From positions 124,001-188,000 of the forward strand of contig NZ_QOZG01000007.1 in assembly GCF_003335045.1 (NCBI RefSeq): 64,000 bases of DNA, in the 5' to 3' direction. The position numbers and the translations under genes are program-made. Positions 6,697 through 26,837 of the stretch are shown here, piece after piece. Under the pieces are notes generated by a model, which had not been told where the DNA came from, made no database searches, and was given only the letters and a program-made list of their open reading frames with translations. Origin of the DNA: Paramesorhizobium salinisoli. GTDB lineage: Bacteria; Pseudomonadota; Alphaproteobacteria; Rhizobiales; Rhizobiaceae. Positions within the stretch are counted from its first letter, which is position 1. Every line of letters begins with the position of its first letter.

Positions 6697-6698
6697 GA

Positions 6699-10495: not shown

Positions 10496-10625
10496 CCCGA
10501 TATGCCCCGCGTTCAAGCATCCGCCACCCCGCCCGCCATGGCTGGTCGCCCAACGAGATTAGCCCACTGCCCCTTGCCTGCCTAGAGCGAGTTTCAGCTA
10601 AATCTGATCATTTGGCCGCCAGGCT

Positions 10626-11588: not shown

Positions 11589-12931
11589 TGAAAACCTTTC
11601 AGGGCAGGATCACGCAGCGGCAGTTTGCTGGCATCGCGATGCAGCAATATGACCTGTTCGGCGTCCGATATCCTGTCATAGATTGCCTCAAGACCGCCAT
11701 CATCGTCGGCAGGCGGGGTTTCAGACAAATCAGGGAAGAGTACCGTAAACTTCTGCTTGACCCCGGGGAGCTTTTCCTCGCCGACCGTTACCCAGCTGCC
11801 ATTGGCGCAATAATTGGCGAAGTCCTTGCTGGCGAGGATACGAGAGGGTGAATTCTTCGTCAACACCTGAAGCCGCTGCACTTCATTGACGGCCGAGCCG
11901 AAGACGGAAAAGGTCAGGCGATCGGAGAGCCCGACATTGCCATACATGACATTGCCGACATGCAGCCCTATGCCATAACCGATCTCGTCCAACCCCTCCT
12001 GGTTCCTGCGGGCATTCAGTTCCGCCATCCGCTTTATCGCCTTATGGGTCGCGGCGAGCGCGGCCTGACAGGCAAGCTCTGATGGCGCACGATGTCTCTC
12101 GCAGGGGTAGACGGCAAGAAAGCCGTCGCCGAGAAAGCTGAGGATCTGGCCGCCCGCCCGGTTGAACGGAGCGGCGATCGCATCGAAATACTGATTCAGC
12201 GTTTCGATATAGACATCGCGGCCCGCGGTCTCGGCGAGCCTTGTGGAATGACGCATGTCGGCCATCACCAGCGCTGCACGCACCGTATCGCCCTCGCCAC
12301 GCTTTATCTGGCCGTTGAGCACGCGCTTGCCCGCGTCGCCACCGAGATAGGTGGTGAGCATGTTGTCGGTGAGCTTATGAAGAACGGCCATCTTGCTGGC
12401 CACCGCGAGATGGTTCTGCATGCGCAGCAATGCCGCGATCATATTGTCGCTGAAGCCGCCTGGGCTATCGGTGGACCACGACCCGACCATCCCCTGGTTG
12501 GTATTGCCGCCAAACGAGTGGACGAAAGCCAAGTAATCGGTCACGCCGATGAGCTTGAGCTCATCGAAAATGGGAAATTCCGACGGTACATCAGGGTGGA
12601 GCCGACGGCGCAGATGATCGAGGTTGTTACTGAACAGATGATAATAAGGGCTGCGTGTAAACCGGTCGGATGGTCCGCCATTCGACTTGCGGAACCCTTC
12701 GACTTCCATGCCCTGGCCACGGCGCCAGGTGAAGCCCAGCGCATCGTAAAGGGGATGCAGCATTGAAAAGCTCAGGTGGACCCGGGCCAGCGGCAGGCCA
12801 GCGGCTGCCAGACGCTCACAAAAGCCCCTGACGATGGTCTTGAGATCGTCGCCGGCCAATGAGGTTTCGGTCAGCCAATCGGCGACCTTGTCCAACAAAA
12901 TGGTCGAAATCTCGGATTGTGCCGTGCTCAT
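11585..12931 (-). CDS. class III adenylate/guanylate cyclase
   Basis: Predicted cyclic-nucleotide synthase of 448 residues. The C-terminal cyclase domain (about 215-400) has the two metal-binding aspartates in VMADMRHST (D225) and FLGDGFLAVYP (D269). The N-terminal 200 residues are a conserved soluble region common in rhizobial cyclases (LLDKVADWLTETSLAGDDL) and presumably sense a signal; there is no membrane segment. I chose the ATG at 12931, where family-like sequence begins, rather than a frame extension 48 codons upstream. It is translationally coupled to a secreted lyase-like protein, and a cNMP-binding protein is encoded about 6 kb away. Confidence 0.88.
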   Translation of the reverse strand: MSTAQSEISTILLDKVADWLTETSLAGDDLKTIVRGFCERLAAAGLPLARVHLSFSMLHPLYDALGFTWRRGQGMEVEGFRKSNGGPSDRFTRSPYYHLFSNNLDHLRRRLHPDVPSEFPIFDELKLIGVTDYLAFVHSFGGNTNQGMVGSWSTDSPGGFSDNMIAALLRMQNHLAVASKMAVLHKLTDNMLTTYLGGDAGKRVLNGQIKRGEGDTVRAALVMADMRHSTRLAETAGRDVYIETLNQYFDAIAAPFNRAGGQILSFLGDGFLAVYPCERHRAPSELACQAALAATHKAIKRMAELNARRNQEGLDEIGYGIGLHVGNVMYGNVGLSDRLTFSVFGSAVNEVQRLQVLTKNSPSRILASKDFANYCANGSWVTVGEEKLPGVKQKFTVLFPDLSETPPADDDGGLEAIYDRISDAEQVILLHRDASKLPLRDPALKGFQ

Positions 12932-13128
12932 GCTTGCTTTGGCCGCTTCGAACCGGGGTGCCGTTCGAACACGGGACCATCTCCATTTGTTATGCAAAGA
13001 GATGCCCGCCTCTTGCCGGCCTCCCCGAGCTTCGTTGAATGAGCGAAACCGATAGCTTGAAAAATTAGCCCTCAATCGCCGAAATTACAAGCTGCGGCGA
13101 TGGTAAGGAATGGAAGCACTGAAAAGGA

Positions 13129-14424: not shown

Positions 14425-14442
14425 GCCTGATCCGGTTCAGGC
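14425..14442. terminator. small hairpin between convergent genes
   Basis: GCCTGA and TCAGGC form a 6-bp stem with a 6-nt loop exactly between the GFA stop and the end of the converging dehydrogenase gene. No U-tract follows, so a terminator role is tentative. Confidence 0.3.
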
Positions 14443-15822
14443 CTTCACCATCGTCTCCCGGTTCAGTCCGAGGCGCTCGAAAATATTCCGTGTATCGACG
14501 ATCAGCGGCGCCCAGTCGGCGATCGCCTTGTAGTCGACATTGTCATGGTCCGTGGCGACGAGGACGGCGTCGAAGCGCTTCAAAGCGGCTTCGCTCAGCG
14601 CGACGGAACGCCGTCCTTTAAGCGCCATATGCTCCCTGGTTGGTGGAATTTCGTCGATATGCGGATCATGGAATTCCGCTTGGCCGCCGCGTTCCTCGAT
14701 GAGCTCGATCAGCCGCAAGGACGGGCTCTCGCGTGTGTCGGGCACGTTCTTCTTATAGGCAAGCCCGACGACGAGGATGCGTGAACGGCTCATTGCCTTT
14801 CCGGCGCGGAAATCGAGCGCCCTGGCAAGCACATCGACCACATGGCGGGGCATTGCCGTGTTGATTTCAGCCGCCAGCTCAATGAAGCGGGTCGGCAATT
14901 CATATTCGCGAGCTTTCCAGGTGAGATAAAACGGATCGATCGGAACGCAATGCCCACCGAGGCCCGGACCGGGGTAAAAGGGCATATAGCCGAAAGGCTT
15001 GCTCTTTGCGGCTTCGATCACTTCCCAAATATCGATGCCCATCGCAGCGAAGACGACCTTCAACTCGTTGACGAGCGCGATGTTGACCGAGCGAAAGATG
15101 TTCTCGGTGAGTTTGACGGCCTCCGCCGTCGCCGTGGTCGAGACAGGCACGATAGTCTTCACCACGCTTTGATAGAAGGCCTGCATCAGGGCTGTCGCTC
15201 CGGCTCCATCACCTGCAACGACCTTCGGAATCAACGCCACTTCGAAGCTGCGGTTGCCGGGGTCCTCGCGCTCCGGCGAAAAGCCGACGAAAAAATCCAT
15301 TTCCGATTTCAGCCCGTTCTTCTCGAGAATCGGCTTCATGACGCCGTCCGTGGTACCCGGATAGGTCGTTGATTCCAGCACGATGAGCTGACCATGCCGC
15401 AGATTGTCGGCGATGACCTGAACGGTATCGGTGACGAAAGAGAGGTCCGGCTCGCGCTGCTTCGTCAATGGTGTCGGAACGCAGATGATGATGACGTCGC
15501 ACGCGGCAAGCTCGGCAAAGTCGGCGGTGGCGCGGAACCGGCCATCCGCCAGCTGCAAGGCGAGGGCATCGGATGTTACCGCCTCGATATAGGATCGGCC
15601 GGCATTGAGGTTCTCGATCTTCTGTCTATCGATGTCGAAGCCGGACACCGGAAATCCTGCGCGTGCGGTCGCGATGGCGAGAGGCAGTCCGACATAGCCA
15701 AGCCCGATCACACCCACCTGCGCGGTGCGCGTCGAAATCCGTTCCAAAAGACGATCAGATGTGGATCGAGAGACGTCCAAGGACCTGCCTTCCATCGATG
15801 TGGGCAGATCATTCGCCATCAT
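14437..15822 (-). CDS. nucleotide-sugar 6-dehydrogenase (UDP-N-acetylglucosamine dehydrogenase type, WbpA/TviB-like)
   Basis: NAD-dependent oxidation of a UDP-hexose(amine) to the uronic acid, feeding acidic sugars to glycan synthesis. The 461-residue protein has the Rossmann motif GVIGLGYVGLPLA (about 37-49), the catalytic cysteine segment GPGLGGHCVPIDPFYL, and the C-terminal UDP-binding segment GLAYKKNVPDTRESPSL. The PIDPFYLTWKAREY form is that of the WbpA/WecC group (UDP-HexNAc) rather than UDP-glucose dehydrogenases, so the product is more likely a UDP-HexNAc uronic acid. It is transcribed away from the neighbouring glycosyltransferase at 15946, with a 123-bp divergent gap. Confidence 0.9.
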   Translation of the reverse strand: MMANDLPTSMEGRSLDVSRSTSDRLLERISTRTAQVGVIGLGYVGLPLAIATARAGFPVSGFDIDRQKIENLNAGRSYIEAVTSDALALQLADGRFRATADFAELAACDVIIICVPTPLTKQREPDLSFVTDTVQVIADNLRHGQLIVLESTTYPGTTDGVMKPILEKNGLKSEMDFFVGFSPEREDPGNRSFEVALIPKVVAGDGAGATALMQAFYQSVVKTIVPVSTTATAEAVKLTENIFRSVNIALVNELKVVFAAMGIDIWEVIEAAKSKPFGYMPFYPGPGLGGHCVPIDPFYLTWKAREYELPTRFIELAAEINTAMPRHVVDVLARALDFRAGKAMSRSRILVVGLAYKKNVPDTRESPSLRLIELIEERGGQAEFHDPHIDEIPPTREHMALKGRRSVALSEAALKRFDAVLVATDHDNVDYKAIADWAPLIVDTRNIFERLGLNRETMVKA

Positions 15823-15945: not shown

Positions 15946-17034
15946 ATGCGGATTGCCTTCCATGCACCCATGAAATCGCCCACCCATCCGGTTCCTTCGG
16001 GCGACCGCAGGATGGCGCAATTGCTGGTGAAGGCGCTGGAACGCAGCGGCCATGAAGTGGAGCTGGTATCCGAACTTTCGACCCATCAGCGCGAACCCGA
16101 CCTTGCCCGTTTCGCGACGATTGAAAGAGCGGCTGCAGGAGAAGCCGCAAGACTGCGAGCGCTTTGGAAGTGCGAAGGCGCGCCGGATCTCTGGTTCACC
16201 TATCACCCCTATTACAAGGCGCCTGACATGATCGGGCCAGGCTTGGCCGCTGCTTTCGGCATTCCCTATCTGACAGCCGAGGCATCCTATTCCGCGCGCC
16301 GCAATGCGGGACTGTGGGCGAAAACGCAGGCAGTGACGCTGCAGTCGGTGAAGCAGGCGGCGCTGAATATCTGCTTCACCCGGCGAGATCGCGACGGGCT
16401 GTTGGCTGCGGTGCCCGATGCCGCTCTCGATATGCTTTTACCCTTCATCGACACGGCAGCTTATCCCGAGCGATCGCCGGCCGTCGATCCGTCCAGACTC
16501 GTCTGTATCGCGATGATGCGATCCGGCGACAAGTACGCAAGCTATGAAATGCTCGCGCGCGCGCTCGACAAGCTCCGCCATCTGCCCTGGACCTTGTCGG
16601 TGGTGGGGGACGGGGCACTTCGAAGAGAAGTCATGGCGCTGTTCGCCGGTCTCCCGCCGCAGCGGATCGAATGGCGTTTACGGCTGGAGGCCCCCGAAGT
16701 GACAAGCGTCCTCTCCGGCGCGGGAATCTATGTGTGGCCGGGCTGCGGCGAGGCTTATGGACTGGCCTATCTCGAAGCCCAGGCCGTGGGGCTTCCCGTG
16801 GTGGCGCAGCATGTCGCAGGCGTGCCTGAGGTGGTGGTGAACGGGCAAACCGGATTGCTTACGCCGCCCGGCGATGTGGAGGCTTTCGCGTCGGCAATCG
16901 AAAGGCTGCTTGGGAACGAGCGGGAGCGCATGATGATGGCCGACGCCGCCTGGCGCTTCGTGCACGAGGAGCGGTCTCTCGAAGTCGCGGCCGTGCGTCT
17001 TGCGGCCATGCTTGCGAAAGTTGCCGGCGCATGA
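15946..17034 (+). CDS. glycosyltransferase family 4
   Basis: A GT-B fold retaining glycosyltransferase of 362 residues. The N-terminus MRIAFHAPMKSPTHPVPSGD is the typical acceptor-domain start, and the C-terminal donor site GEAYGLAYLEAQAVGLPVV carries the E-x7-E motif (about residues 262-270). The ATG at 15946 begins the family homology; the frame is open further upstream but antisense to the dehydrogenase there. Its stop overlaps the deacetylase-like gene start (ATGA), so both act together. Donor and acceptor unknown. Confidence 0.88.
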   Translation: MRIAFHAPMKSPTHPVPSGDRRMAQLLVKALERSGHEVELVSELSTHQREPDLARFATIERAAAGEAARLRALWKCEGAPDLWFTYHPYYKAPDMIGPGLAAAFGIPYLTAEASYSARRNAGLWAKTQAVTLQSVKQAALNICFTRRDRDGLLAAVPDAALDMLLPFIDTAAYPERSPAVDPSRLVCIAMMRSGDKYASYEMLARALDKLRHLPWTLSVVGDGALRREVMALFAGLPPQRIEWRLRLEAPEVTSVLSGAGIYVWPGCGEAYGLAYLEAQAVGLPVVAQHVAGVPEVVVNGQTGLLTPPGDVEAFASAIERLLGNERERMMMADAAWRFVHEERSLEVAAVRLAAMLAKVAGA

Positions 17035-17777
17035 TGGATGATCCAGCCTGGCAGCCGCTGCATGACGAACTCCTGCGCTGGGCGCGGGCCGGGCGCATGG
17101 CGGAATTCTGGCTGCGCGACGATGATGCGGTGGAACCGACCGCGGCGCTGGACCGCTCGCTCGATCTCACGGCGAAACATGCCATACCTCTTACGCTGGC
17201 GGTCATCCCAGCCCACACCGGCGACGCCCTGGCGGCAAGGCTTTCGCGCGAGGGGCATGTCTCGATAGCCATTCATGGCTGGGCGCACGAGAACCACGCG
17301 CTGGCGGCGGAGAAGAAACAGGAACTGGGGCCGCATCGGCCGCGCCAGGTGGTGCTTGGAGATCTGGCGCGGGGATTTGCGCGGCTCAGTCACCTGCATG
17401 GAGAACGCGCGCTGCCTTTGCTGGTGCCGCCCTGGAATCGGATCGATGCCGGCCTGGTTTCCGAACTCGACCGGCTCGGCTTCCGGGCGCTATCCGTATT
17501 CGGACCGCCAAAGCCTGCTTCGATCCCCCTGATCAACAGCAATGTCGATGTGATGGACTGGCACGGCACGCGCGGTTGCCGCGATCACGTATTGCTGGTG
17601 GTGGAGATCGTTGCACAGCTTCGACGGGCTTTTGGCGGCGGCGATCCCGTAGGCCTTCTCACCCATCATCTCGTGCATGATGAGGCGGTCTGGTCATTCA
17701 TGGAGCGCCTGTTCGAAGTGACGTCCCTGCACCGAGCCCGCTGGCGCTCGCCGCCAGAATTGTTGGCTAAACCTTAA
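17031..17777 (+). CDS. polysaccharide-deacetylase-like protein
   Basis: A 248-residue protein of the NodB/CE4-like superfamily. Visible are the acidic motif WLRDDD (about 24-29), the metal-site motif HGWAH (about 81-85) corresponding to H-x3-H, and LVPPWNR (about 129-135), the arginine-bearing motif 3. There is no signal peptide, so it should be cytosolic and may act on a nucleotide- or lipid-linked sugar. Coupled to the GT4 and opposite a UDP-HexNAc dehydrogenase, it may deacetylate a HexNAc-containing intermediate. The 3' end overlaps the converging metallohydrolase gene by 4 bp. Confidence 0.75.
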   Translation: MMDDPAWQPLHDELLRWARAGRMAEFWLRDDDAVEPTAALDRSLDLTAKHAIPLTLAVIPAHTGDALAARLSREGHVSIAIHGWAHENHALAAEKKQELGPHRPRQVVLGDLARGFARLSHLHGERALPLLVPPWNRIDAGLVSELDRLGFRALSVFGPPKPASIPLINSNVDVMDWHGTRGCRDHVLLVVEIVAQLRRAFGGGDPVGLLTHHLVHDEAVWSFMERLFEVTSLHRARWRSPPELLAKP

Positions 17778-18616
17778 GCGAAGCGAGGAAATTCCAACTC
17801 CTGGCCGTCGCGCGCGGCAAAGGCTCCCGCAAAAGCATCCTTCGCCTGTTGTTCGATGATCTCCAGCTGACCGTCGCTACGCTTGGGATCATGATGGAAC
17901 AGAGCGAGGCCGCGTGCGCCGGCTGCTTCGCAGAGCCTGACCCCTTGCTGCCAGGTAGAATGCCCGAAACCGCGGTAGCGCTCCATTTCCGGCTCGATAT
18001 AGGTGCAGTCATAGATGACGAGATCCGCGTCCTCGATCAGCCCGAGTATGGCCGCGTCGAGCTGGCCGGGTTCATGTTCGGTGTCGCTGATCAATGCAAT
18101 CGCACGCCCACCCCATTCGACACGGTAGCCGATGCAGCCGCCTGGATGATTAAGGCTGGCGGTTCTGATCGTGATGCCCTCGCGCGGCTGCAGGATGGCG
18201 CCCGAGACGAAGTCATTGCAGGCGATATTGGCCTTGCAGATATCGAGCTTGGCCGGAAACCATGGCGGCAGCATGAATTCGCTCAGCATCTGACGCGTGG
18301 TCATTCGCCCGGCAAGATGGCCGGACCAGACGGTGATGCGGCAGTTCTTGTCATGGATGGGAGTAAAGAACGGAAAGCCGATAATATGGTCGTAATGGCA
18401 ATGGGTGAAGAACAGGTCGATGTCGGTGACTCCAGCGGCCCGCAAGGCTTCCCCGGCGAGGCGCAGTCCGGAACCGGCGTCGAGGAAAAGCCTGTGTCCC
18501 CCGCATATCAATTCGACGCAGGCTGTATTGCCGCCATAGTGCAGGAACTCGGCCCCCGATACCGGAACGCTGCCGCGCACCCCCCAGAATTTCACCAGCA
18601 ACCTTTCGTCGTCCAT
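17774..18616 (-). CDS. metallo-beta-lactamase-fold hydrolase
   Basis: A 280-residue metallohydrolase. The zinc motif HCHYDH lies at about residues 72-77, with further ligands in SLNHPGG and SDTEHEPG. The opening LLVKFWGVRGSVPVSG and the body resemble the RNase Z/PhnP-like and phosphodiesterase-like branch. It is the last gene of the leftward operon methyltransferase-like, ABC-like, cNMP-binding, metallohydrolase. A cyclic-nucleotide phosphodiesterase role next to a cNMP sensor is attractive but not shown by the sequence. Confidence 0.85.
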   Translation of the reverse strand: MDDERLLVKFWGVRGSVPVSGAEFLHYGGNTACVELICGGHRLFLDAGSGLRLAGEALRAAGVTDIDLFFTHCHYDHIIGFPFFTPIHDKNCRITVWSGHLAGRMTTRQMLSEFMLPPWFPAKLDICKANIACNDFVSGAILQPREGITIRTASLNHPGGCIGYRVEWGGRAIALISDTEHEPGQLDAAILGLIEDADLVIYDCTYIEPEMERYRGFGHSTWQQGVRLCEAAGARGLALFHHDPKRSDGQLEIIEQQAKDAFAGAFAARDGQELEFPRFA

Positions 18617-18646
18617 TCGGCCTCGCGGGAATAAAAGAGGTGTCGC

Positions 18647-19099
18647 CTAGCTTTTGGTGCTTCGCGCGTCGATGAGTTCCGCCGTCGTGCGGCTGAGCCG
18701 GTCCGCCAGAACACGCAGTATTTCGATGGTTATCTCCGGGAATTCCCTGAGAAGGCGCAGGAAATGATCCTTGCGGATTCGCAAGGTTTCGAGTGGGCCG
18801 TTCGCCCTTACGGTTGCCGTACGCGAGACATTACACAAAATGGCGATCTCGCCGATGATGGAATTGGGCTCCGCCTCGGCAATTTTGATCTGGCCTTGAT
18901 CCGAATCGACGAGAATATCCGCCGTGCCCGATAATATGACATAGGCGGCGTCGCCTTCGTCGCCCTGCCTGAAAAGGACCTGGCCCGCGCCGTAGCTGAC
19001 GCGATCGGACGTGAAAGCGAGAAGCTTGAGCTTTGCCGGCTCAACGCCCCGGAACAGGGGAATCCGTTGCAGCATTCCGACTTCATCCTTGAGAAGCAC
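18647..19099 (-). CDS. stand-alone cyclic-nucleotide-binding-domain protein
   Basis: A 150-residue protein that is almost entirely one cNMP-binding domain (about 15-130), without a DNA-binding HTH. The phosphate-binding cassette is seen as NSIIGEIAILCNVSRTATVR, with the conserved G-E and the R-T-A pair of functional cAMP/cGMP sites. I chose the GTG at 19099 (GGAAGG 8 nt upstream), where the family-like start LLKDEVGMLQRIPLF begins; the frame extends to a GTG at 19156. It follows the degenerate ABC gene by 90 bp and precedes the metallohydrolase by 30 bp, so it probably couples a cyclic-nucleotide signal to those proteins. Confidence 0.85.
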   Translation of the reverse strand: MLLKDEVGMLQRIPLFRGVEPAKLKLLAFTSDRVSYGAGQVLFRQGDEGDAAYVILSGTADILVDSDQGQIKIAEAEPNSIIGEIAILCNVSRTATVRANGPLETLRIRKDHFLRLLREFPEITIEILRVLADRLSRTTAELIDARSTKS

Positions 19100-19189
19100 T
19101 TTGTAAACCTTCCCGAATTCCTCTGCCAGAACGGCTGAATAAGAGCATGATGTCACCCGAAATCCGGATCACGTTTTTGGCACCGTGCT

Positions 19190-21904
19190 CTAGGACAGCA
19201 ACTCCTTGAAGATACCATTTCTCGCCAGTAGCGTCTCGTGCGTTCCGTCTTCGACCAGTTGGCCATCCTTGAACACGATGACGCGATCGAACATCGCCGC
19301 CATGGCAGGATTTGCCAGGACCCAGATGATGGCGGGCGAGCAGCCATCGCGTTTGGCCGCCTCCAGCACATTGTGCAGGATTCGACCCTGCGCGCGCTGA
19401 TCAAGAGCAGCAAGCGGGCGGTTGAGAACGATGAAATCGGCCCGTTTGAGCAATGCCCTGGCGATATCAACTTTTTGCCGCTGCCCGCCAGTGAGGCGCC
19501 TTCCGCCTGCGCCGACATTGAAATCGAGTCCGACGTCCAGAACGTCGGCATAAAGGCCGAGCTCTTCGAGAATTTCGTTGACGATCGAGCGGATGCGTTC
19601 CGGTCCTTCGGGATGGCTGTGGCTGATGCGTCCAAACAGCACGTTGTCCATGATGCTGGCCGCCGTGATGCAGGCCATCGGATTGTAACGCTCGATCTGA
19701 TCGTTCAGCTCTGGCGGCAGTCCCTGGTAGAACCGGTTGCGTGCCCCGATGACCCTCTTCATCAGATCGTCACTCAAAAGGCCGAAGCGATGGCGCGGCT
19801 CGATATAGGCGAAGCTCAGCGCCACGATCATGGCGCGGTCGGCTGCCGAGACAGTTTCATACGACCTATTCTTGAGCTTTTGCAGCAAGGTTTCGTAGGC
19901 GGGTATTTCCTCTGGCGTCATGAAAGCGAGCTGCTGGAAGAAGGGATGTCCTGGCGGCAGATCGGCAAAGAGTTCGATCGCCTGTTCCGCTATTTCCAGG
20001 CCCATTTCATAGAGCGCTCTGTCCAGTCCGGCTTGGCTGAGGACCGAGGAAAAATAGGGATCGGCAGCCAGCGCCCTGTGGGCGAGGGCCGGGCCGACAG
20101 CCACGCCGAAGAGCAGGTTCTCCCCGACAGTCGCTTCTCTGTTGTAGACGTCGGGTTCGAAAGGCACCACCAGTGCGCTCAGGCCTTCCGCTTCCAGCCG
20201 CGTGCGCAACGCGCTTCGCAATTCCACAATTCGCCCGATGAGCGCCTCGTGCCGCATGGGATTGACCGGAGACCGCAAGCCGAGATCCAGTATGTCCTGC
20301 GACAGGAGAACTGCATCGAGAACATTGCGGATCGCGGCAAAAAGATCCTGCGGTCCGGCAGCACCGGCCGCGTCGTAATCAATCCAGTCGCTGTCCAGGT
20401 CGAAATCCGGATTACCGGCTTTGCGCGCCTCGTCGATGCTCCAGCGGCGGTGGTCGGCCTCAGGCCCTTCATAGGTAGCCGGTCTCAGCGGGGCATGTTT
20501 CAGCCCATAGAGAAGATTATCGCGCAGACTGCCTTGAAAGAGAAAGACATCCGATGACGCATAGGCCATCCGCCGTCCCGTCACCGCTTCCGGCAATTCG
20601 AGCAGGTCGGTCTCGCCGGCAGTCACCTTGCCGCTTTTTGGCCTGTTCAGGCGGGCGATGGCTTCCGCCACAGCTTCCGCGCCCCCCGCCGTGGTACTGA
20701 CAATCGCGACGATTTCACCCAAATTGATCTGGAAGGAGACCCGTTCGACGAGTGTCGCGCCTCCATCATCGGCAACAGAGAGGTTGACGGCGGCAAGCGG
20801 GCCGGTCAGCGCGCCGACCGGTTCAAGCCGGATCGCCTGGATTTCGGGCGCCACCAGGTTCTCGGTGCTGAATTGCTCGACCACCTGTGCATATTTGACC
20901 TGCACGTCCTGGCGCGTCTGATCCCAGTCGATCAACTCTTTCAATGGTCCCGGTAGGTCCTTGTAGGCGGTGATGACGGCCACGAGCTGGCCGACATCCA
21001 ATCGCCCCTGGAGAGCCAGATAGCCGCCGATCAGATAAAACAGGAAAGGTGTTATCTGGGCGAGGAGATTGTTGAGAAATTTCACCAGAAACTTCCATTG
21101 GTAGAGATCGTAGCGGATCTTGAAGATCCGGCCGAGCCTTGCGGCGATGTCGGCACGTTCGTAATTGGAGGTGTCGTGAACATGGACGGCGCCGATACCA
21201 TCGACAATCTCGCCGACGCGACCGGACAGCGCGCGCGCCGTGATCTGGCGTTCACGGCCGAGCCGTAACAGCCTTTTGCGCATTTGCGGGATGAGCACGA
21301 TCTGGATGCCCACGATGATCGCGGCCATCATCCCCAGCCAGAAATTCTGCATCACGATGAAAAGCATGGCGGTGAGCGCCTGACCGCCGAGCAGCGCGGG
21401 CTGCACGAATGCGTCCCCGATAAAGCCACCGAGCGGCTCCACCTCATCCTTGACGAGGCTGGCAACTTCGGCGGATTTCACCCGCTTGAAATATTGCGGC
21501 GGAAATCGCAGGACGCGGTCGACGAGCTCGAAGCGGATACGACGCAGCATCCGTTCGCCGAGGCGGCCCTTGTAGGTGTTGATATAGAATTTGAACAGAC
21601 CATTGATGATGACCAGCAGCAGGAACACCATACTGAGGGCAATCAGCATGCCCTCGCGGTCGAGCTGGAAGCCGGAGAAGAGACTGACCTTTCCGATGAA
21701 GGGCAGGTCCGGACTGAGCGCCATGAAGGACTGGGTGGCACCCGGTGTTTCAAAGCCTTCGCCCTGGATTGGTCCGTTGACGATCAGCTTGGGCAGGTCG
21801 AACGACATGAAATAGGGAATCATCGAGAAGGCGACGATCACCAGAATCCAGAGCTGCTGCCTCCTGGTGTGGCTCCAGATATAGCGGGCGAGGCTTTGTT
21901 CCAT
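19190..21904 (-). CDS. ABC-exporter-like protein with degenerate, insertion-split nucleotide-binding domain
   Basis: A 904-residue membrane protein. Residues 1-340 are a normal type I exporter membrane domain (about six helices, segment RIRFELVDRVLRFPPQYFKR). The ATPase half is abnormal. The Walker A position reads VSTTAGGAEAV (about 402-412) and lacks the GKS/T lysine. Walker B reads FIVLNRPLAALD (about 824-835), with N-R where D-E is expected. The H-loop position is N865 (VLANP). The signature LTGGQRQKVDIARALLK (804-820) is intact. About 330 extra residues separate the halves and contain three look-alikes of the Q-loop segment (454-468, 585-601, 747-760). It is likely ATPase-dead. It sits 12 bp after a methyltransferase-like gene and before a cNMP-binding protein. 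Confidence 0.85.
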   Translation of the reverse strand: MEQSLARYIWSHTRRQQLWILVIVAFSMIPYFMSFDLPKLIVNGPIQGEGFETPGATQSFMALSPDLPFIGKVSLFSGFQLDREGMLIALSMVFLLLVIINGLFKFYINTYKGRLGERMLRRIRFELVDRVLRFPPQYFKRVKSAEVASLVKDEVEPLGGFIGDAFVQPALLGGQALTAMLFIVMQNFWLGMMAAIIVGIQIVLIPQMRKRLLRLGRERQITARALSGRVGEIVDGIGAVHVHDTSNYERADIAARLGRIFKIRYDLYQWKFLVKFLNNLLAQITPFLFYLIGGYLALQGRLDVGQLVAVITAYKDLPGPLKELIDWDQTRQDVQVKYAQVVEQFSTENLVAPEIQAIRLEPVGALTGPLAAVNLSVADDGGATLVERVSFQINLGEIVAIVSTTAGGAEAVAEAIARLNRPKSGKVTAGETDLLELPEAVTGRRMAYASSDVFLFQGSLRDNLLYGLKHAPLRPATYEGPEADHRRWSIDEARKAGNPDFDLDSDWIDYDAAGAAGPQDLFAAIRNVLDAVLLSQDILDLGLRSPVNPMRHEALIGRIVELRSALRTRLEAEGLSALVVPFEPDVYNREATVGENLLFGVAVGPALAHRALAADPYFSSVLSQAGLDRALYEMGLEIAEQAIELFADLPPGHPFFQQLAFMTPEEIPAYETLLQKLKNRSYETVSAADRAMIVALSFAYIEPRHRFGLLSDDLMKRVIGARNRFYQGLPPELNDQIERYNPMACITAASIMDNVLFGRISHSHPEGPERIRSIVNEILEELGLYADVLDVGLDFNVGAGGRRLTGGQRQKVDIARALLKRADFIVLNRPLAALDQRAQGRILHNVLEAAKRDGCSPAIIWVLANPAMAAMFDRVIVFKDGQLVEDGTHETLLARNGIFKELLS

Positions 21905-21916
21905 TCGCGATCGCCG

Positions 21917-22501
21917 CTAGTCGGTGGACGGATGCAGAACGTAAAAGCGCCTTTTGGCGAAAGGCGATCCGGCGATCGCCTCGTCGTCAAGCGTCAATTC
22001 AACGCTGCAATGGATCTTCACCGTCGGTCGGCTGATGATGGCGGGAACCTGCGAGGATGCCCGGTCGAGCTCAGGCGGATATTCGATCACCACCACGCAG
22101 GCATTGTCGACCAACGAGAAAAGCAATTGGCCAAGCGGTTCACGGCTGCCGAAGGGCTTCAGCGAATATCCGAGCAGCACCAGCCCGTAACTACCCCGGG
22201 CATAGTTGTAATCGACCTCCTGGAATTTCTGATCGAGGTGACGCACCCGGCAGGGATGGCCGTTCAGCTCTTCCGTCTCAAAGGCCGGCGTTTTCGGATC
22301 GACGGAAAGAACGGAAAGCGGTCGGTGCGTCAGAAATTCGGTGACCGGCCGGATATGACCGCCGATCTCGACGATATGCGGGCAGTCGCGCACGAAATGG
22401 GCTGCGAGAACCTGGCGGATGAACGCAGCCGGTCCCGAGAGATGCGGCAGATCCCGCCCATCGGCCAGCGGCGCAGAAGCTTCATATGTCTCTAAATTCA
22501 T
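21917..22501 (-). CDS. methyltransferase-like (Rossmann-fold) protein
   Basis: A 194-residue protein with a class I SAM-methyltransferase-like core: HIVEIGGHIRPVTEFL (about 41-56) resembles the SAM-binding glycine loop, VLSVDPKTP is the acidic strand-2 end, and YGLVLLGYSLKP is strand 4. The glycine loop is imperfect (GGHIRP), so SAM binding is uncertain. It is the first gene of the leftward operon containing the degenerate ABC protein and is divergent from a second methyltransferase-like gene with a 68-bp gap. Substrate unknown. Confidence 0.65.
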   Translation of the reverse strand: MNLETYEASAPLADGRDLPHLSGPAAFIRQVLAAHFVRDCPHIVEIGGHIRPVTEFLTHRPLSVLSVDPKTPAFETEELNGHPCRVRHLDQKFQEVDYNYARGSYGLVLLGYSLKPFGSREPLGQLLFSLVDNACVVVIEYPPELDRASSQVPAIISRPTVKIHCSVELTLDDEAIAGSPFAKRRFYVLHPSTD

Positions 22502-22569
22502 GCGATGAAATTTACTTTCGAAGTCGGGATTTTATTGTCTCTCACGAAACCACAACATACAACAGGCAT

Positions 22570-23247
22570 ATGATGGATGCTACCACCCGGACACACAGGC
22601 ACACAGAGGATTGGCGTGAACACGCCTACGACCTAACGAGAGGGATTGCCGCCTATACGGCCAGCCCTCTGATCGATGGACTGGCGCGCGTTGTCGCCGG
22701 CTATCCGAAGGCCGATATCGCCAATGCCTTCAATCACAAGCAGGTCGCTTGCAAGATGTGGGCGCGGGACAAGCTTTTCGAAAGATGCGGCGGCCGTTTC
22801 AAGCGGATATGGGTGTTGGGGGGATGGTACGGCGTGCTGCCGGCGATGCTTTTCGACGATGCACGCTTCGATATAGATATGATTGAAAGCATCGATATCG
22901 ACCCGCATGTGGCAGCGATCGCGCAAACGTTGAACCGGTCGGCAGCAGGGCGCTTCCGGGCCTTGACCAGCGACATGTACGCGCTCGACTATGCGGCGGC
23001 AAAGCCCGATCTCGTGGTCAATTCGAGCTGCGAACACATCGCGGATGTGCGGGACTGGCTCGATATGCTGCCTGAGGGTACATTGGTTCTTCTGCAGTCG
23101 AACGACTATTTCAGCGAGCCGACCCATATCAATTGCGTGGCATCGCTTAAAGCTTTCGAGGCGATGGCGGCGTTGCGGCAAATACGGTTTTCCGGTGAAC
23201 TGCCGACGAAGAACTACACCCGCTTCATGCTGATTGGGACTGTTTGA
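22570..23247 (+). CDS. SAM-dependent methyltransferase-like protein
   Basis: A 225-residue class I methyltransferase-like protein. Motif I is IWVLGGWYGVLPAML (about 80-94), acidic strand 2 is IESIDIDPHVAAIA, and motif IV is PDLVVNSSCEHIADVRDW. The start could be either of two tandem ATGs at 22570 and 22573. It diverges from the other methyltransferase-like gene, and its end overlaps the converging glycosyltransferase gene by 23 bp. The NSSCEHI motif is distinctive and may help to place the family. It could modify a glycan or lipid carrier; that is inference. Confidence 0.75.
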   Translation: MMDATTRTHRHTEDWREHAYDLTRGIAAYTASPLIDGLARVVAGYPKADIANAFNHKQVACKMWARDKLFERCGGRFKRIWVLGGWYGVLPAMLFDDARFDIDMIESIDIDPHVAAIAQTLNRSAAGRFRALTSDMYALDYAAAKPDLVVNSSCEHIADVRDWLDMLPEGTLVLLQSNDYFSEPTHINCVASLKAFEAMAALRQIRFSGELPTKNYTRFMLIGTV

Positions 23248-24379
23248 CGCCCAAAAGCCCGTGCAAGATTCGTGCCGTGCCTTGCGCGCCGTCGAGATCA
23301 AGAGAATGGGCCTGTGGTTCCGGCCTTGCGAAGGCATGTTCGATCGCCGCCGCCAGGGCGGTTTCGCTCAGATCTTCCTCGCTCAGCACGGTTGCAAGAC
23401 CGAGCCTTTCAAGGCCTGAAGCGCGGGAGGTCTGTTCCGTTTCACCGCCTGACGCGAATGGAACGAGCAGGCAACGGCATCCGGCGCGCAAGACATCGCA
23501 AACGGTATTGTAGCCGGCTTGCGAGACGGAAAGACGTGCGCCGGTCAAGAGGCTGGCGAAATCCTCGCGAAACCTGAAGACGGAGAGATTTGGCGGCGCA
23601 TCATGCTGGATTGCCTGGAGGGCGTCCGTGGGAAAATTGGGACCCGATATCAGGCACCATTTCCGCTCTGCCGGGCCCTTGCGTGCAGCCCCGACCGCGG
23701 AATTGACGAGAGTCCTGCCGGCGGCGCCGCCTCCGACGGAAACCAGAACGTCGAAACGCTGCGAAGCGGGCGATGGCGGCGGTGCGGCCACGAGGCCGGT
23801 ATAGGCGATCTTGGTCTCGAACGCATGGGCCAGGGGAAATGTCTGGCCGAGGCTCGCAAAGGCCGGGTCACCATGGACCATCACCAGATCGAAATATCGG
23901 TTGATGAGCTCGACCGTCTCCTCGCTGCGGCCCGGCTTGATCCGCTCTTGAAGGATGTCGCGGATGGATGCCACGACGAACGGCTTCGGCGTCATAGTAT
24001 CGATGGCGTCGAGCAGGGGAAGAAGCTCAAAGCGCATCTGGCGGCGGCCGAAGGGAAAGGCCTCCAGGATGACGATGTCCGGTCCGCAACGGTCGCAGGC
24101 CTCCAGCAGCATCTGGCGGCGTCGTGCCTTGAAGGCGTCATCGACAGGCTTTCCCTCCAGATCCGCCAGCCCGGAAAAGCCGTGATCGGAGGTGACGGCG
24201 GGGGGCAGCTGCACGGTCCGGATGCCGGGGCCGGGAAAGCCTGCGACGGGCGCGCCTCCCATGACAACGGTGACGTCGAAGCCTTCGGCGGCGAGCGCCG
24301 TGGCAATATGGCTGGCGCGGGCAAGATGCCCGATGCCGAGCAGGTGCTGGACGTAGAGGAACACACGGGGGCGTGTCAT
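23225..24379 (-). CDS. GT28-like (MurG-type) glycosyltransferase
   Basis: A 384-residue GT-B protein. The start MTRPRVFLYVQHLLGIGHLARA has the glycine/histidine loop seen in GT28-like enzymes, and the C-terminal donor site is SQAGYNTVCDVLRAGCRCLL followed by ETEQTSRA. I take the ATG at 24379, which overlaps the preceding gene stop by four bases; the open frame extending to 24850 is antisense-like noise over that gene. It is third of a leftward trio (GT28-like, GT4, GT28-like) sharing one transcript. Donor and acceptor unknown. Confidence 0.85.
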   Translation of the reverse strand: MTRPRVFLYVQHLLGIGHLARASHIATALAAEGFDVTVVMGGAPVAGFPGPGIRTVQLPPAVTSDHGFSGLADLEGKPVDDAFKARRRQMLLEACDRCGPDIVILEAFPFGRRQMRFELLPLLDAIDTMTPKPFVVASIRDILQERIKPGRSEETVELINRYFDLVMVHGDPAFASLGQTFPLAHAFETKIAYTGLVAAPPPSPASQRFDVLVSVGGGAAGRTLVNSAVGAARKGPAERKWCLISGPNFPTDALQAIQHDAPPNLSVFRFREDFASLLTGARLSVSQAGYNTVCDVLRAGCRCLLVPFASGGETEQTSRASGLERLGLATVLSEEDLSETALAAAIEHAFARPEPQAHSLDLDGAQGTARILHGLLGVKQSQSA

Positions 24380-25620
24380 ATCGTGGCCTGCCACTCCTGT
24401 TCGAAGAGGGATTTCAACTGGCCGATGCTCGACCTGTGGTCGAAACGCGTGCGAACGTGCCGCTCCGCCGCATCGCCGAGGCGTGTTCGAAGGGCCGGAT
24501 GGCGGATTGTCCGCTCCAATGCCCGCGCCAGGGCCGCGGGATCGTCCGGCGGGACGAGCAAACCGGTTTCGCCGTCCGTCAGCAGTTCGGGAACGCCTGA
24601 AACATTGGTCGAAACGCAGATCAGCCGCTGGCTCGCGGCTTCCACCAGTACGTTGGGCAGGCCGTCCCTGTCGCCATCGGCGGCGATGCGGCAGGCGAGG
24701 GCAAATATGTCCGCGTCCCGATAAAGCCGAAGCACGTCCTCCTGCGCAAGCGCCCCTTTCCAGGAGATGCGGGGCGCAATGCCGAGCTTTTCCGCCAGCG
24801 CCTTCAGCCGGTCGAGCTGATCGCCACCGCCGGCATGTACGAAGCGCCACGCCAGATCACGCGGCAGGAGGGCGAGCGCCTGCAAAAGTGTGTCATACCC
24901 TTTTTTCTCCACGGCCCGTCCGACACTGAGAATATCGACAGGTTCGACGCGCGATGAGCCGTCATGGGGCGGACGGTCTCCCTCGAAACGTCCAAAGCGG
25001 GCAAGATCGAGCCCGTGATAGCTCAGATGCACGCGAGAACTGCCGCTCGCCAGGCTTTTGAGATGCGTGAACCCGGCCTTCGTGCAGGTGACCATCCAGC
25101 GGGCGGAGGAAAGCTTGTCCGCCAGATCCCAGTCCTCGGAGGTCCAGATGTCCTTGGCATGGGCCGAACATGTCCATGGCAGGCCGCGCAGGAGGCTTGT
25201 GTAGCGCGTAACGGAGGCTGGTGTATGAGCGAAATGGGCGTGCAGCCAGCCGGCCCTTTCAGGCCATTCCGCCGCTAAAACGAGCGCCTGGCCGAAGCGG
25301 CGAATGCGGTTGCGGGTCGGGTCGCGGCGCAGATCGCGAACAAAGGCGCCAAGCGCGCGCCGGAAGCCTGCCCGTGGAAAGCAGGTGAGTGCCGACCGAA
25401 CGAGCCTCAGCGGCTCCTCATGCAGATATTCAGGCAGGTAATGCACGCACGCCTTTATCTCGTCATGCACCGGATGACGCTTGCCGTCGGTGGGCCGCCT
25501 CAGCGCAACGATCACCAGCTCGATCCCGGCGCGCTCCAGGCCGAGGAGTTCTTGTGCGATGAAGGTTTCCGACAGGCGCGGATATCCTTTCACGACCACC
25601 ACGATCTTCCGGGAGTGCAT
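24376..25620 (-). CDS. glycosyltransferase family 4
   Basis: A 414-residue GT-B enzyme. The donor domain has the GT4 pattern RDGLPNVLVEAASQRLICVS and GVPELLTDGETGLLVPPDD (about 305-345), with the first E of E-x7-E replaced by the DGLPNVLVEA arrangement common in this subgroup. A tandem TTG-ATG is at the start; the ATG at 25620 begins five bases after the upstream stop. Middle gene of the GT trio. Confidence 0.87.
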   Translation of the reverse strand: MHSRKIVVVVKGYPRLSETFIAQELLGLERAGIELVIVALRRPTDGKRHPVHDEIKACVHYLPEYLHEEPLRLVRSALTCFPRAGFRRALGAFVRDLRRDPTRNRIRRFGQALVLAAEWPERAGWLHAHFAHTPASVTRYTSLLRGLPWTCSAHAKDIWTSEDWDLADKLSSARWMVTCTKAGFTHLKSLASGSSRVHLSYHGLDLARFGRFEGDRPPHDGSSRVEPVDILSVGRAVEKKGYDTLLQALALLPRDLAWRFVHAGGGDQLDRLKALAEKLGIAPRISWKGALAQEDVLRLYRDADIFALACRIAADGDRDGLPNVLVEAASQRLICVSTNVSGVPELLTDGETGLLVPPDDPAALARALERTIRHPALRTRLGDAAERHVRTRFDHRSSIGQLKSLFEQEWQATI

Positions 25621-25625
25621 CAAAT

Positions 25626-26837
25626 TTAGTTCCTGCCCTCAACAAGGGCGAGGTGGCTCGTCGATCTCTCTTCGAGCCATTCCCCAACGATCTCGGAGAT
25701 ATGGACAAGCCCTTCGAGACGGAGATCGGGCGCGCTTTGCGAGGGGCGGGGGCGGTCCGGCAATGCTTTCAGTGCGGCGGCGAAACGCGGTGCGTCCTCG
25801 GCCTCCTCGGGCAATAGCATCTGCACCAGGCCGAGCTCTGCTGCGCGGCCTGCCCGTATCAGCTGCTCCTGGCGCGGCCGGACCCGGGGCACGATCAGCG
25901 CCGGCTTGTCGAAGGACAGGATCTCGCAATAGGTGTTGTAGCCGCCCATCGCCACGACCGCACGGGCACCGGCGATCAGTTCCTCCATCCGGTTGTCGAA
26001 CTCGATCATCTTGATGAAGGGTATGCCGGCGCTCTTGGCGATCAGCTTCTGCCTTTTGCGGGCAGGCATATAGGGGCCGAGCACGATCAGGGCGTCATGC
26101 CGGAGTGTCGGATCCTGCTGATAGGCATGGATCACATCGTGGACGAGATCGGCGCCGTCGCCTCCGCCGCCAGTGGTGACGAGAATATAGTCGCCTTCCG
26201 GCTTGTGGCCGGGCTGCCCCTGCGACAGCCGCCGCTGCAGGAAACCGACGAATTTCATCCTGGCCCGGATGGCCGGCGGCACGTCCAGACCGACCAGCGG
26301 ATCGTAGAAATCAGGCGGACCATAAGTCCAGATCATGTCGTAGAACAGGCCGATCTTGCGCATGACATCGTTCTTCTGCCACTCCGCCTCCAGGAGGTCT
26401 GGCGCATCCATCACCTCGCGCAGGCCGAGCACAAGCGTTGTGCCGCGTGCCTTCAGATAGGACAGCGTGTCCTCGATCTCGCCGCGCAGGCCGAGCGGCT
26501 CCTTGTCCACAATGAAAATGTCCGGCTGGAAGGTCTCGGCAGTGCGGCGGATGATGTCCTGGCGCATCCTCAAGGTTTCATTGAGGTCGATATGGCGTTC
26601 CATTGAGGTGTATTCGCCATTCCGAAGCTTGATCACACTGGGTGTTTTGACGAAATCGACGCGCGACCGGTAGTCGAAGGCGCCGGCGATGGTGGCGCCC
26701 GAAATGATGAGAACCTGTAGCCCGCGGAAGTCCTCGACAAGCGAATGGGCGATCGTACGGCAGCGGCGCAGATGGCCCAGTCCGAATGTGTCGTGGCTAT
26801 ACATGAGGACGCGAGCATCATCGAAGCGCTGAATCAT
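25626..26837 (-). CDS. GT28-like glycosyltransferase, first gene of trio
   Basis: A 403-residue GT-B protein with the start ARVLMYSHDTFGLGHLRRCR, which parallels the third gene of the trio (QHLLGIGHLARA), and the donor motif AMGGYNTYCEILSFDKPALI followed by RPRQEQLIRA. GAGAGG precedes the ATG at 26837 by about 8 nt. The two GT28-like genes flanking a GT4 gene may be an old duplication or a fixed three-step pathway. Acceptor and donor are not determinable. Confidence 0.85.
   Translation of the reverse strand: MIQRFDDARVLMYSHDTFGLGHLRRCRTIAHSLVEDFRGLQVLIISGATIAGAFDYRSRVDFVKTPSVIKLRNGEYTSMERHIDLNETLRMRQDIIRRTAETFQPDIFIVDKEPLGLRGEIEDTLSYLKARGTTLVLGLREVMDAPDLLEAEWQKNDVMRKIGLFYDMIWTYGPPDFYDPLVGLDVPPAIRARMKFVGFLQRRLSQGQPGHKPEGDYILVTTGGGGDGADLVHDVIHAYQQDPTLRHDALIVLGPYMPARKRQKLIAKSAGIPFIKMIEFDNRMEELIAGARAVVAMGGYNTYCEILSFDKPALIVPRVRPRQEQLIRAGRAAELGLVQMLLPEEAEDAPRFAAALKALPDRPRPSQSAPDLRLEGLVHISEIVGEWLEERSTSHLALVEGRN

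What the first reader, a model, noticed from the sequence alone, without database searches (positions are those of the whole stretch)
17774..22501. Four-gene operon linking a methyltransferase-like protein, an ATPase-dead ABC protein, a cNMP-binding protein and a metallohydrolase
Seen: four leftward genes with short gaps, the ABC-like one lacking ATPase residues and the next one being a cyclic-nucleotide domain without an output domain. Known: stand-alone cNMP domains usually act on partner proteins. Inferred: the ABC-derived membrane protein may be a regulated scaffold or gate controlled by cyclic nucleotide, with the metallohydrolase and methyltransferases acting on the same glycan or lipid. 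A class III cyclase is encoded about 6 kb away. This is my best candidate for an undescribed system.
Basis: partly seen in the sequence, partly recalled or inferred. Interest (0 to 1): 0.85.

Follow-up and report, generated by a model that had tools for sequence, protein, structure and literature searches.

The report
Cyclic-nucleotide-linked ATPase-dead ABC protein
A membrane protein that looks like an ABC pump but has lost its ATP-burning machinery travels with a cyclic-nucleotide sensor across a large group of bacteria, sometimes fused to it, which suggests a membrane gate or scaffold controlled by a signalling molecule instead of by ATP.

Summary
The four leftward genes are real and tightly spaced. 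The core is the 904-aa ABC-exporter-like protein plus the cyclic-nucleotide-binding (CNBD) protein. ABC relatives, mostly full-length, occur in 129 of 385 sampled genomes of the class; all 27 matching genomes of 398 sampled from the phylum lie in this class. In 182 loci the CNBD is the next gene in 165, fused to the ABC C-terminus in 16, about 0.6 kb off in 1; the fusion state changed at least twice. Of 183 aligned ABC sequences none keeps all five ATPase residues and 130 keep none, while CNBD ligand residues persist. Class III cyclases lie within 8 kb in 25 of 38 genomes, 1.2 expected. The metallohydrolase looks more like a cNMP phosphodiesterase or RNase Z than a glycan enzyme. Best reading: a cNMP-controlled, ATP-independent ABC-fold membrane module attached to a glycan or glycolipid pathway. 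The ABC-CNBD link is strongly supported; ligand, substrate and output are inferred. The methyltransferase-like gene is a sub-clade accessory. My searches found no publication describing it.

The parts
19190..21904 (-). Pseudo-ABC protein, 904 aa: exporter-type transmembrane domain plus a nucleotide-binding-domain fold with degenerate ATPase motifs and an inserted region of about 280 aa (residues ~475-745); three Q-loop-like 'xxxENLLFG' segments at residues 459-467, 592-600 and 750-758
18647..19156 (-). Stand-alone cyclic-nucleotide-binding domain protein (169 aa as called; probable true start GTG at 19099, 150 aa)
17774..18616 (-). Metallo-beta-lactamase-fold hydrolase, 280 aa, possible cNMP phosphodiesterase (THCHYDH; H157, D178, H241)
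21917..22501 (-). 194-aa protein of unknown family, accessory; full-length or nearly so in 11 of 182 loci, shorter remnants in 7
22486..23247 (+). Divergent 253-aa protein; the gene in the same place in Mesorhizobium sp. WSM1497 is annotated class I SAM-dependent methyltransferase; the true start is probably downstream
11585..13075 (-). Class III adenylate/guanylate cyclase, 496 aa
23225..24343 (-). GT28-like glycosyltransferase (start approximate)
24376..25623 (-). GT4 glycosyltransferase
25626..26837 (-). GT28-like glycosyltransferase
15946..17034 (+). GT4 glycosyltransferase (start approximate)
17031..17777 (+). Polysaccharide deacetylase-like protein
14437..15822 (-). Nucleotide-sugar (UDP-glucose/GDP-mannose type) dehydrogenase
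4526..10516 (-). Peptide-type ABC importer (two-ATPase protein 8600-10516, binding protein 6699-8606, permease-like ORFs 5698-6696 and 4526-5701); relatives lie within 9 kb of the pseudo-ABC gene in 82 of 182 loci

Best explanation
A class III cyclase makes a cyclic nucleotide; the CNBD protein, docked on (or fused to) the C-terminal end of the pseudo-NBD, binds it; this shifts the conformation of an MsbA-like, probably dimeric, transmembrane domain that can no longer be driven by ATP. The module thereby opens, closes or assembles a membrane step in the glycan or glycolipid pathway encoded by the neighbouring glycosyltransferases and deacetylase. The metallohydrolase degrades the nucleotide and resets the signal. 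Shown: conserved pairing and fusion, loss of ATPase residues in an otherwise recognisable NBD fold, preserved cNMP-binding residues, enrichment of cyclases, preserved metal-ligand residues in the hydrolase. Inferred: which nucleotide binds, that binding moves the membrane domain, that a glycolipid or glycan passes or is assembled there, and that the hydrolase is the phosphodiesterase of the loop.
For: CNBD next gene in 165, fused in 16, about 0.6 kb off in 1, of 182 loci; in 5 of 5 fused proteins scanned Pfam finds ABC_membrane and cNMP_binding above cut-off in one chain, and the record of Ruegeria sp. B32 names its fusion a CNBD protein; at least two changes of the fusion state on the tree, 0 of 500 shuffles as low. 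Reverse test: 90 of 106 CNBD matches in 289 class genomes adjoin or are fused to an ABC match; in 4 of the 16 others the CNBD sits beside the glycosyltransferase cluster while the pseudo-ABC is elsewhere in the genome. ATPase residues: all five in 0 of 183, none in 130 of 183, with the NBD fold kept (3vx4, Z 25.5, 2.1 A over 240 residues). CNBD Gly 182/182, Glu 174/182, Arg 179/182. Cyclase within 8 kb in 25 of 38, expected 1.2. Two or more of four glycan gene kinds within 8 kb in 146 of 166 unfused loci. Hydrolase: signature and YhfI-like fold.
Against: Only 2 of 16 fused loci have two or more glycan gene kinds and 4 of 16 a cyclase within 8 kb, so the setting is not universal. Thirteen of the 38 order genomes have no cyclase within 8 kb. 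Twelve of 183 ABC sequences keep both the Walker A Lys and the catalytic Glu, and L183 keeps four of five residues. G403 has the ABC and glycosyltransferases but no CNBD was found. CNBD relatives without any pseudo-ABC match exist (for example G117, G470, G565, G305). Overall Foldseek TM-scores of the ABC model are modest (0.57 at best by target length among the 50 rows shown) and two model stretches have pLDDT under 50. No binding, transport or phenotype data; no complex was modelled.
Confidence: 0.55

Rival explanations
1. Non-transporting scaffold or receptor: the pseudo-ABC is a membrane platform that recruits or switches the glycosyltransferases (as SUR switches KATP channels) and nothing crosses it.
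For: ATPase loss; a conserved insert and three Q-loop-like segments could be docking surfaces; glycosyltransferases nearby; SUR proteins are among the structural matches.
Against: The transmembrane half is highly conserved (25-residue blocks of 0.61-0.84 mean consensus frequency over residues 1-350 except 51-75), which a mere anchor would not need.
Confidence: 0.25
2. Still an ATP-driven transporter, with ATP bound by a degenerate site or supplied by an active partner ABC protein.
For: Some distant members keep K and E (12 of 183) and one keeps four of five residues; a genuine peptide-type ABC importer lies within 9 kb in 82 of 182 loci.
Against: 130 of 183, and the window protein among them, have none of the five residues; I recognised no partner exporter-type half-transporter among the 21 gene clusters found in at least 6 of 60 loci, though not every neighbour was classified.
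Confidence: 0.12
3. The metallohydrolase is not a cNMP phosphodiesterase but a tRNase Z-like, PhnP-like or other phosphodiester hydrolase with no part in the signal.
For: Sequence scores are higher for RNase Z (68.5 bits) than for the cyclic-nucleotide phosphodiesterase model (34.8 bits); RNase Z leads the PDB sequence searches and the second structural alignment (2cbn Z 29.5 versus YhfI Z 28.1); present within 9 kb in only 68 of 182 loci.
Against: Signature motif of the atypical class II phosphodiesterases, YhfI is the first Foldseek match, and the genetic setting is cyclase plus cNMP sensor.
Confidence: 0.35
4. A Pycsar-like anti-phage system with the pseudo-ABC as a membrane effector.
For: Cyclase plus CNBD plus membrane protein; PADLOC matches of the CNBD to PycTIR (55.2 bits) and of the window cyclase to PycC (59.6 bits).
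Against: Those matches cover the generic domains; the ABC protein itself gets only 34.2 bits to mad3 over the NBD end. About a third of the sampled class genomes carry the ABC gene, mostly near glycan genes, not the patchy spread expected of defence genes.
Confidence: 0.03

Closest known systems
HetC of Nostoc PCC 7120 (PMC10986499; abstract and passages seen)
   Same: ABC exporter-type protein that carries a CNBD needed for its function.
   Different: HetC has a C39 peptidase domain, an N-terminal CNBD that bound ppGpp rather than cAMP, and a catalytically required ATPase; here the CNBD is C-terminal or separate, no peptidase domain was found and the ATPase is degenerate.
MsbA-type lipid exporters (NCBIfam TIGR02203, 198.7 bits against a cut-off of 602)
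   Same: Transmembrane domain and NBD fold; best NCBIfam match.
   Different: Far below the family cut-off, ATPase residues lost, about 280 aa inserted in the NBD.
Cyclic-nucleotide-gated channels such as MloK1, SthK and HCN (recalled; SthK appears)
   Same: Membrane domain controlled by a C-terminal CNBD.
   Different: Channel pore fold, not an ABC exporter fold.
Atypical class II phosphodiesterases Rv1339, YhfI and CpdA (PMC9293780; passages seen)
   Same: [T/S]HxHxDH motif, PF12706, YhfI-like fold.
   Different: The metallohydrolase is only a remote sequence relative; activity untested.
Pycsar immunity (recalled; PADLOC)
   Same: Class III-type cyclase with a CNBD-bearing effector.
   Different: No specific match of the membrane protein to an effector; widespread and glycan-linked.
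Sulfonylurea receptors (recalled; 7vlu)
   Same: ABC-exporter fold used for regulation rather than transport.
   Different: SUR binds ATP/ADP and partners a potassium channel; no CNBD.

Membership tests
ABC exporter (ATP-driven, MsbA/ABCB-like) | Exporter-type transmembrane domain and NBD fold | tested here: met
   PF00664 69.6 bits; NBD 240 residues at 2.1 A, Z 25.5 to 3vx4
ABC exporter (ATP-driven, MsbA/ABCB-like) | Walker A Lys and Ser/Thr, Walker B Asp, catalytic Glu, H-switch His | tested here: not met
   Window: none of the five; all five in 0 of 183, none in 130 of 183
ABC exporter (ATP-driven, MsbA/ABCB-like) | ATP hydrolysis coupled to transport | not testable with these tools
   needs biochemistry
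Cyclic-nucleotide-binding domain proteins (PF00027) | Profile match and phosphate-binding-cassette Gly, Glu, Arg (positions recalled) | tested here: met
   75.2 bits; G 182/182, E 174/182, R 179/182
Cyclic-nucleotide-binding domain proteins (PF00027) | Binds cAMP or cGMP | not testable with these tools
   HetC shows that a CNBD can bind another nucleotide
Atypical class II cNMP phosphodiesterase (Rv1339/YhfI/CpdA) | [T/S]HxHxDH motif within PF12706 | tested here: met
   THCHYDH; H72, H74, D76, H77, H157, D178, H241 each 69/69; PF12706 61.9 bits; motif definition
Atypical class II cNMP phosphodiesterase (Rv1339/YhfI/CpdA) | Closer to this group than to RNase Z or PhnP | tested here: inconclusive
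   Foldseek first 6kns YhfI, but VIA-align 2cbn 29.5 and 6kns 28.1; NCBIfam phosphodiesterase model 34.8 of 400 bits and RNase Z 68.5 of 252
HetC-like peptidase ABC exporter with CNBD | C39 peptidase domain and N-terminal CNBD | tested here: not met
   No peptidase domain in the window protein or in five fused relatives; CNBD C-terminal in all five
Pycsar | Specific match to a PADLOC Pycsar cyclase and effector | tested here: inconclusive
   Only generic-domain matches, 55.2 and 59.6 bits at best for the window CNBD and cyclase

The most novel reading that the evidence does not exclude
A previously undescribed class-wide system in which an ABC exporter gave up ATP as its driver and became a cyclic-nucleotide-gated, ATP-independent membrane gate (channel, scramblase or glycolipid valve), with a dedicated cyclase, sensor and phosphodiesterase, and a re-engineered pseudo-NBD carrying three copies of the Q-loop segment that normally talks to the membrane domain.
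Probability: 0.3. Interest if true: 0.92.

Novelty: new variant of a known kind. Interest (0 to 1): 0.76.

Why it matters
ABC proteins are taken to be ATP machines; a family kept in about a third of the sampled genomes of this class after losing the ATPase, paired with a cyclic-nucleotide sensor, would show that the fold can be run by a second messenger. It would also give a direct membrane target to the many class III cyclases of rhizobia, most of which, to my knowledge (recalled), have no known output.

Tried and rejected
Metallohydrolase as a glycan enzyme: no glycan-related family match; the structural rows shown are mainly RNase Z, RNase J, YhfI, PhnP, PqqB and PNGM-1 (one row is titled an arylsulfatase). 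Pycsar membership: only generic matches. Four-gene operon as the unit: rejected, since the 194-aa gene is confined to a sub-clade. Whole-sequence ATPase motif search: a Walker A-like pattern occurs in 3 of 183 sequences (L076, L174, L183; in the first two not at the aligned place) and a full Walker B-like pattern in 1 (L183). Relatives outside the class: none in the phylum sample, but only 398 genomes were looked at, at E <= 1e-60. No multi-chain structure tool was on hand, so the ABC-CNBD contact was not modelled. Co-evolution analysis was not attempted (too few paired sequences).

Literature: searches found no paper with the term sets; one search gave papers on ABC transporters and other ATPases without a CNBD (0 occurrences of that term in all 10; listing only); one search gave unrelated papers (listing only); one search gave HetC and a transporter-regulation review (passages; the review mentions MFS-CNBD fusions). 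PMC10945364 (one passage) names SMb20813 as the S. meliloti msbA homologue; it may be this gene, but I could not verify that and tried that tag from recall. PMC6180224 (one passage; found) mentions SMb20811 only as a sequence variant.

Script faults: one search read a wrong column, so its printed empty fusion list is invalid, and one search failed for the same reason; one search is the corrected run. Sampling limits: one search used 182 loci = 60 of the match places, all 80 named loci, 3 plasmid loci and 39 class loci that I picked. Most were picked by rank and spread, but those partly for long open frames, which enriches fusions; so 16 of 182 is not an unbiased frequency. The tree (quick method, no bootstrap) used 112 of the 182. 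One search compared 38 of the 60 order loci with the cyclase counts; the cyclase profiles were built from cyclases of these loci. Searches scored only three and two candidates per genome, so further copies can be missed, and some of their matches are partial genes at contig ends. Of the 16 CNBD places not beside an ABC match, I looked at 12 with more sequence; G438, G536 and the second places of G000 and G324 were not followed.
Full report
What is there. The 904-aa protein is an ABC-exporter-type protein (PF00664 and a broken PF00005), the 169-aa protein a lone cNMP-binding domain, the 280-aa protein a metallo-beta-lactamase-fold hydrolase; the 194-aa protein has no family. Gaps are 12, 33 and 30 bp. 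The CNBD probably starts at 19099, not 19156.

Spread. Relatives of the ABC protein at E <= 1e-60, most of them full-length, occur in 94 of 297 genomes of the order and 129 of 385 of the class, the window's own genome included in each. In a phylum-wide sample, 27 of 398 genomes match and all 27 are in the same class or nearer. Named carriers include Paramesorhizobium (85% identity), Mesorhizobium, Rhizobium, Sinorhizobium and Ochrobactrum, plus Ruegeria, Sulfitobacter, Azospirillum and Methylobacterium plasmids. From these names the class is Alphaproteobacteria.

The ABC-CNBD pair. Profiles built from the loci were run on 182 loci. The CNBD gene directly follows the ABC gene on the same strand in 165, is fused in frame to the ABC C-terminus in 16, and lies about 0.6 kb downstream in 1. 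Five fused proteins scanned against Pfam all show ABC_membrane and cNMP_binding above cut-off in one chain, with ABC_tran above cut-off in four and just below it in one; the record of Ruegeria sp. B32 names its fusion a CNBD protein. On a quick tree of 112 rows the fused state needs at least two changes (fusions or fissions), and 0 of 500 shuffles were as low. Searching from the CNBD side, 100 of 289 class genomes match at E <= 1e-20; of 106 places, 90 adjoin or are fused to an ABC match. Of the 16 exceptions, in four genomes (G382, G494, G452, G518) the CNBD is divergent to the glycosyltransferase cluster while the pseudo-ABC is on another contig with no CNBD in the stretch held; G321 has the CNBD beside glycosyltransferases but no ABC match (86% complete), and G505 has a second CNBD beside the five-gene glycan cluster in addition to its fused form. 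Others are counter-examples: a CNBD without any pseudo-ABC match (for example G117, G470, G565, G305). Conversely, four ABC genomes in that handle range gave no CNBD match: G318 and G449 carry fused, divergent CNBDs, G403 has a pseudo-ABC beside glycosyltransferases and no CNBD found, and G549 is 63% complete.

The ATPase is degenerate, the NBD fold is kept. In 183 aligned sequences the Walker A Lys is present in 21, Walker B Asp in 25, catalytic Glu in 19 and H-switch His in 9; all five scored residues (Walker A Ser/Thr included) are together in none; 130 have none; L183 keeps four; 12 keep both Lys and Glu. In the 99 order and class loci alone, 46 have none. The importer ATPase in the same window keeps Walker A and signature motifs, and a full Walker B pattern in one of its two halves, as a positive control. 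Other positions are invariant: N596, N754 and G758 in 183 of 183. An AlphaFold2 model (pLDDT 80.5, pTM 0.76, with residues 154-173 and 318-347 under 50) matches ABC exporters by Foldseek, with modest overall TM-scores, and the NBD matches the ComA NBD over 240 residues spread across 363-904 at 2.1 A, Z 25.5. So a complete NBD fold is interrupted by roughly 280 extra residues. Three segments resemble the Q-loop-plus-helix element: RRMAYASSDVFLFQGSLRDNLLYG, LVVPFEPDVYNREATVGENLLFG and IERYNPMACITAASIMDNVLFG, with family consensus D...F.GSLRDNLLYG, PFDP..YN..ATVGENLLFG and YDP..Y...ASL.DNVLFG. That these are repeats of one element is my reading of the sequence.

The CNBD looks able to bind ligand. 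The phosphate-binding-cassette Gly, Glu and Arg (positions recalled from the family) are kept in 182, 174 and 179 of 182. A segment KLKLLAFTS before the barrel is unusually conserved and is a candidate docking face (inference).

Signal genes. Class III cyclases lie within 8 kb of the ABC in 25 of 38 order genomes; from each genome's own count of PF00211 matches 1.2 would be expected. Common orders are ABC-CNBD-cyclase (in the one example scanned the cyclase has a Fer2 domain) and ABC-CNBD-MBL-cyclase. The window cyclase is on the same strand. The MBL protein is within 9 kb in 68 of 182 loci. Its metal ligands are invariant in 69 of 69 sequences, its THCHYDH fits the [T/S]HxHxDH signature of the Rv1339/YhfI/CpdA phosphodiesterases (PMC9293780, passages), and the first Foldseek match of its model (pLDDT 91.8) is YhfI. 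RNase Z scores slightly higher in the VIA alignment (29.5 versus 28.1) and higher by sequence, so the assignment as a cNMP phosphodiesterase rests on motif and setting and stays open.

Glycan genes. Among 166 unfused loci, 146 have at least two of GT28, GT4, the second GT4 and the polysaccharide deacetylase within 8 kb; among 16 fused loci only 2 do. Sulfitobacter indolifex and Azospirillum oryzae nevertheless show long ABC forms (3105 and 3225 bp; not scanned for the CNBD) beside or near such genes. Mesorhizobium sp. WSM1497 shows the full set with annotation: three more cyclases, GT, GT4, GT, methyltransferase, ABC, CNBD, MBL, deacetylase, GT4, DUF3095, sugar dehydrogenase, cyclase and peptide-type importer, then a further methyltransferase and cyclase. 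Among the 21 gene clusters found in at least 6 of 60 loci I recognised no dedicated flippase (some assigned by reading only), which makes the pseudo-ABC the obvious membrane element of the cluster (inference).

How it most likely works. The cyclase product binds the CNBD, which sits at the C-terminal end of the pseudo-NBD; the pseudo-NBD relays the change to the transmembrane domain through its Q-loop-type contacts; this gates or organises a glycolipid or glycan step; the MBL protein ends the signal. No step of this sequence has been shown by experiment; the pairing, the residues and the gene setting are what the data show.

Against this reading. The glycan and cyclase setting is weak in the fused clade; a few distant members keep several ATPase residues; a few genomes have one partner without the other; and I found no experiment. 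The alternative of a non-transporting scaffold is hard to separate with these tools.

Known or new. The closest published case found is HetC, an ATP-dependent peptidase exporter with an N-terminal CNBD (PMC10986499, abstract and passages). The ten literature searches, limited to open-licence PubMed Central papers, listed no paper that I recognised as describing an ATPase-degenerate ABC protein paired with a CNBD. I file it as a new variant of a known kind (CNBD-regulated ABC-fold protein), with a real possibility that it is something categorically new.

Noticed in passing
window 10626-11588 (-): Polysaccharide lyase (PF14099, 110 bits) with a signal-peptide-like start, between the cyclase and the importer genes.
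   Followed up: no
window 4526-10516 (-); L223, L224: A peptide-type ABC importer with both ATPases in one chain recurs near the pseudo-ABC (binding protein or permease within 9 kb in 82 of 182 loci); its substrate may belong to the same pathway.
   Followed up: partly
L181:21028-22191; L038:14062-15387: The DUF3095 protein scanned (L038; PF11294, 427.6 bits) contains ADIVGST and FVFGGDG stretches that resemble class III cyclase metal-site motifs (resemblance recalled), so DUF3095 may be a cyclase relative.
   Followed up: no
L062:5729-7453 (-): Cyclase with a 2Fe-2S ferredoxin domain (Fer2 plus Guanylate_cyc), of the cluster often encoded right after the CNBD: a possible redox-controlled cyclase.
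   Followed up: no
L100, L103, L105, L109, L110, L111, L117, upstream of the ABC gene: Shorter matches to the 194-aa gene in Mesorhizobium loci, as if it were being lost.
   Followed up: partly
window 22486-22501: The 5' ends of the two divergent genes overlap as called; the 253-aa gene probably starts further in, since one homologue match begins at residue 28.
   Followed up: partly
L245:6862-8907 (-): Pseudo-ABC gene split by an in-frame stop in G504, with the CNBD still beside it and a cyclase and MBL gene about 5-6 kb upstream.
   Followed up: no
window 41810-42562 (-): A second CNBD protein (250-aa ORF; PF00027, 49 bits), possibly a Crp/Fnr-type regulator.
   Followed up: no
L052:10833-11840 and similar loci: Radical SAM/SPASM protein near the pseudo-ABC in 7 of 60 order loci.
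   Followed up: no
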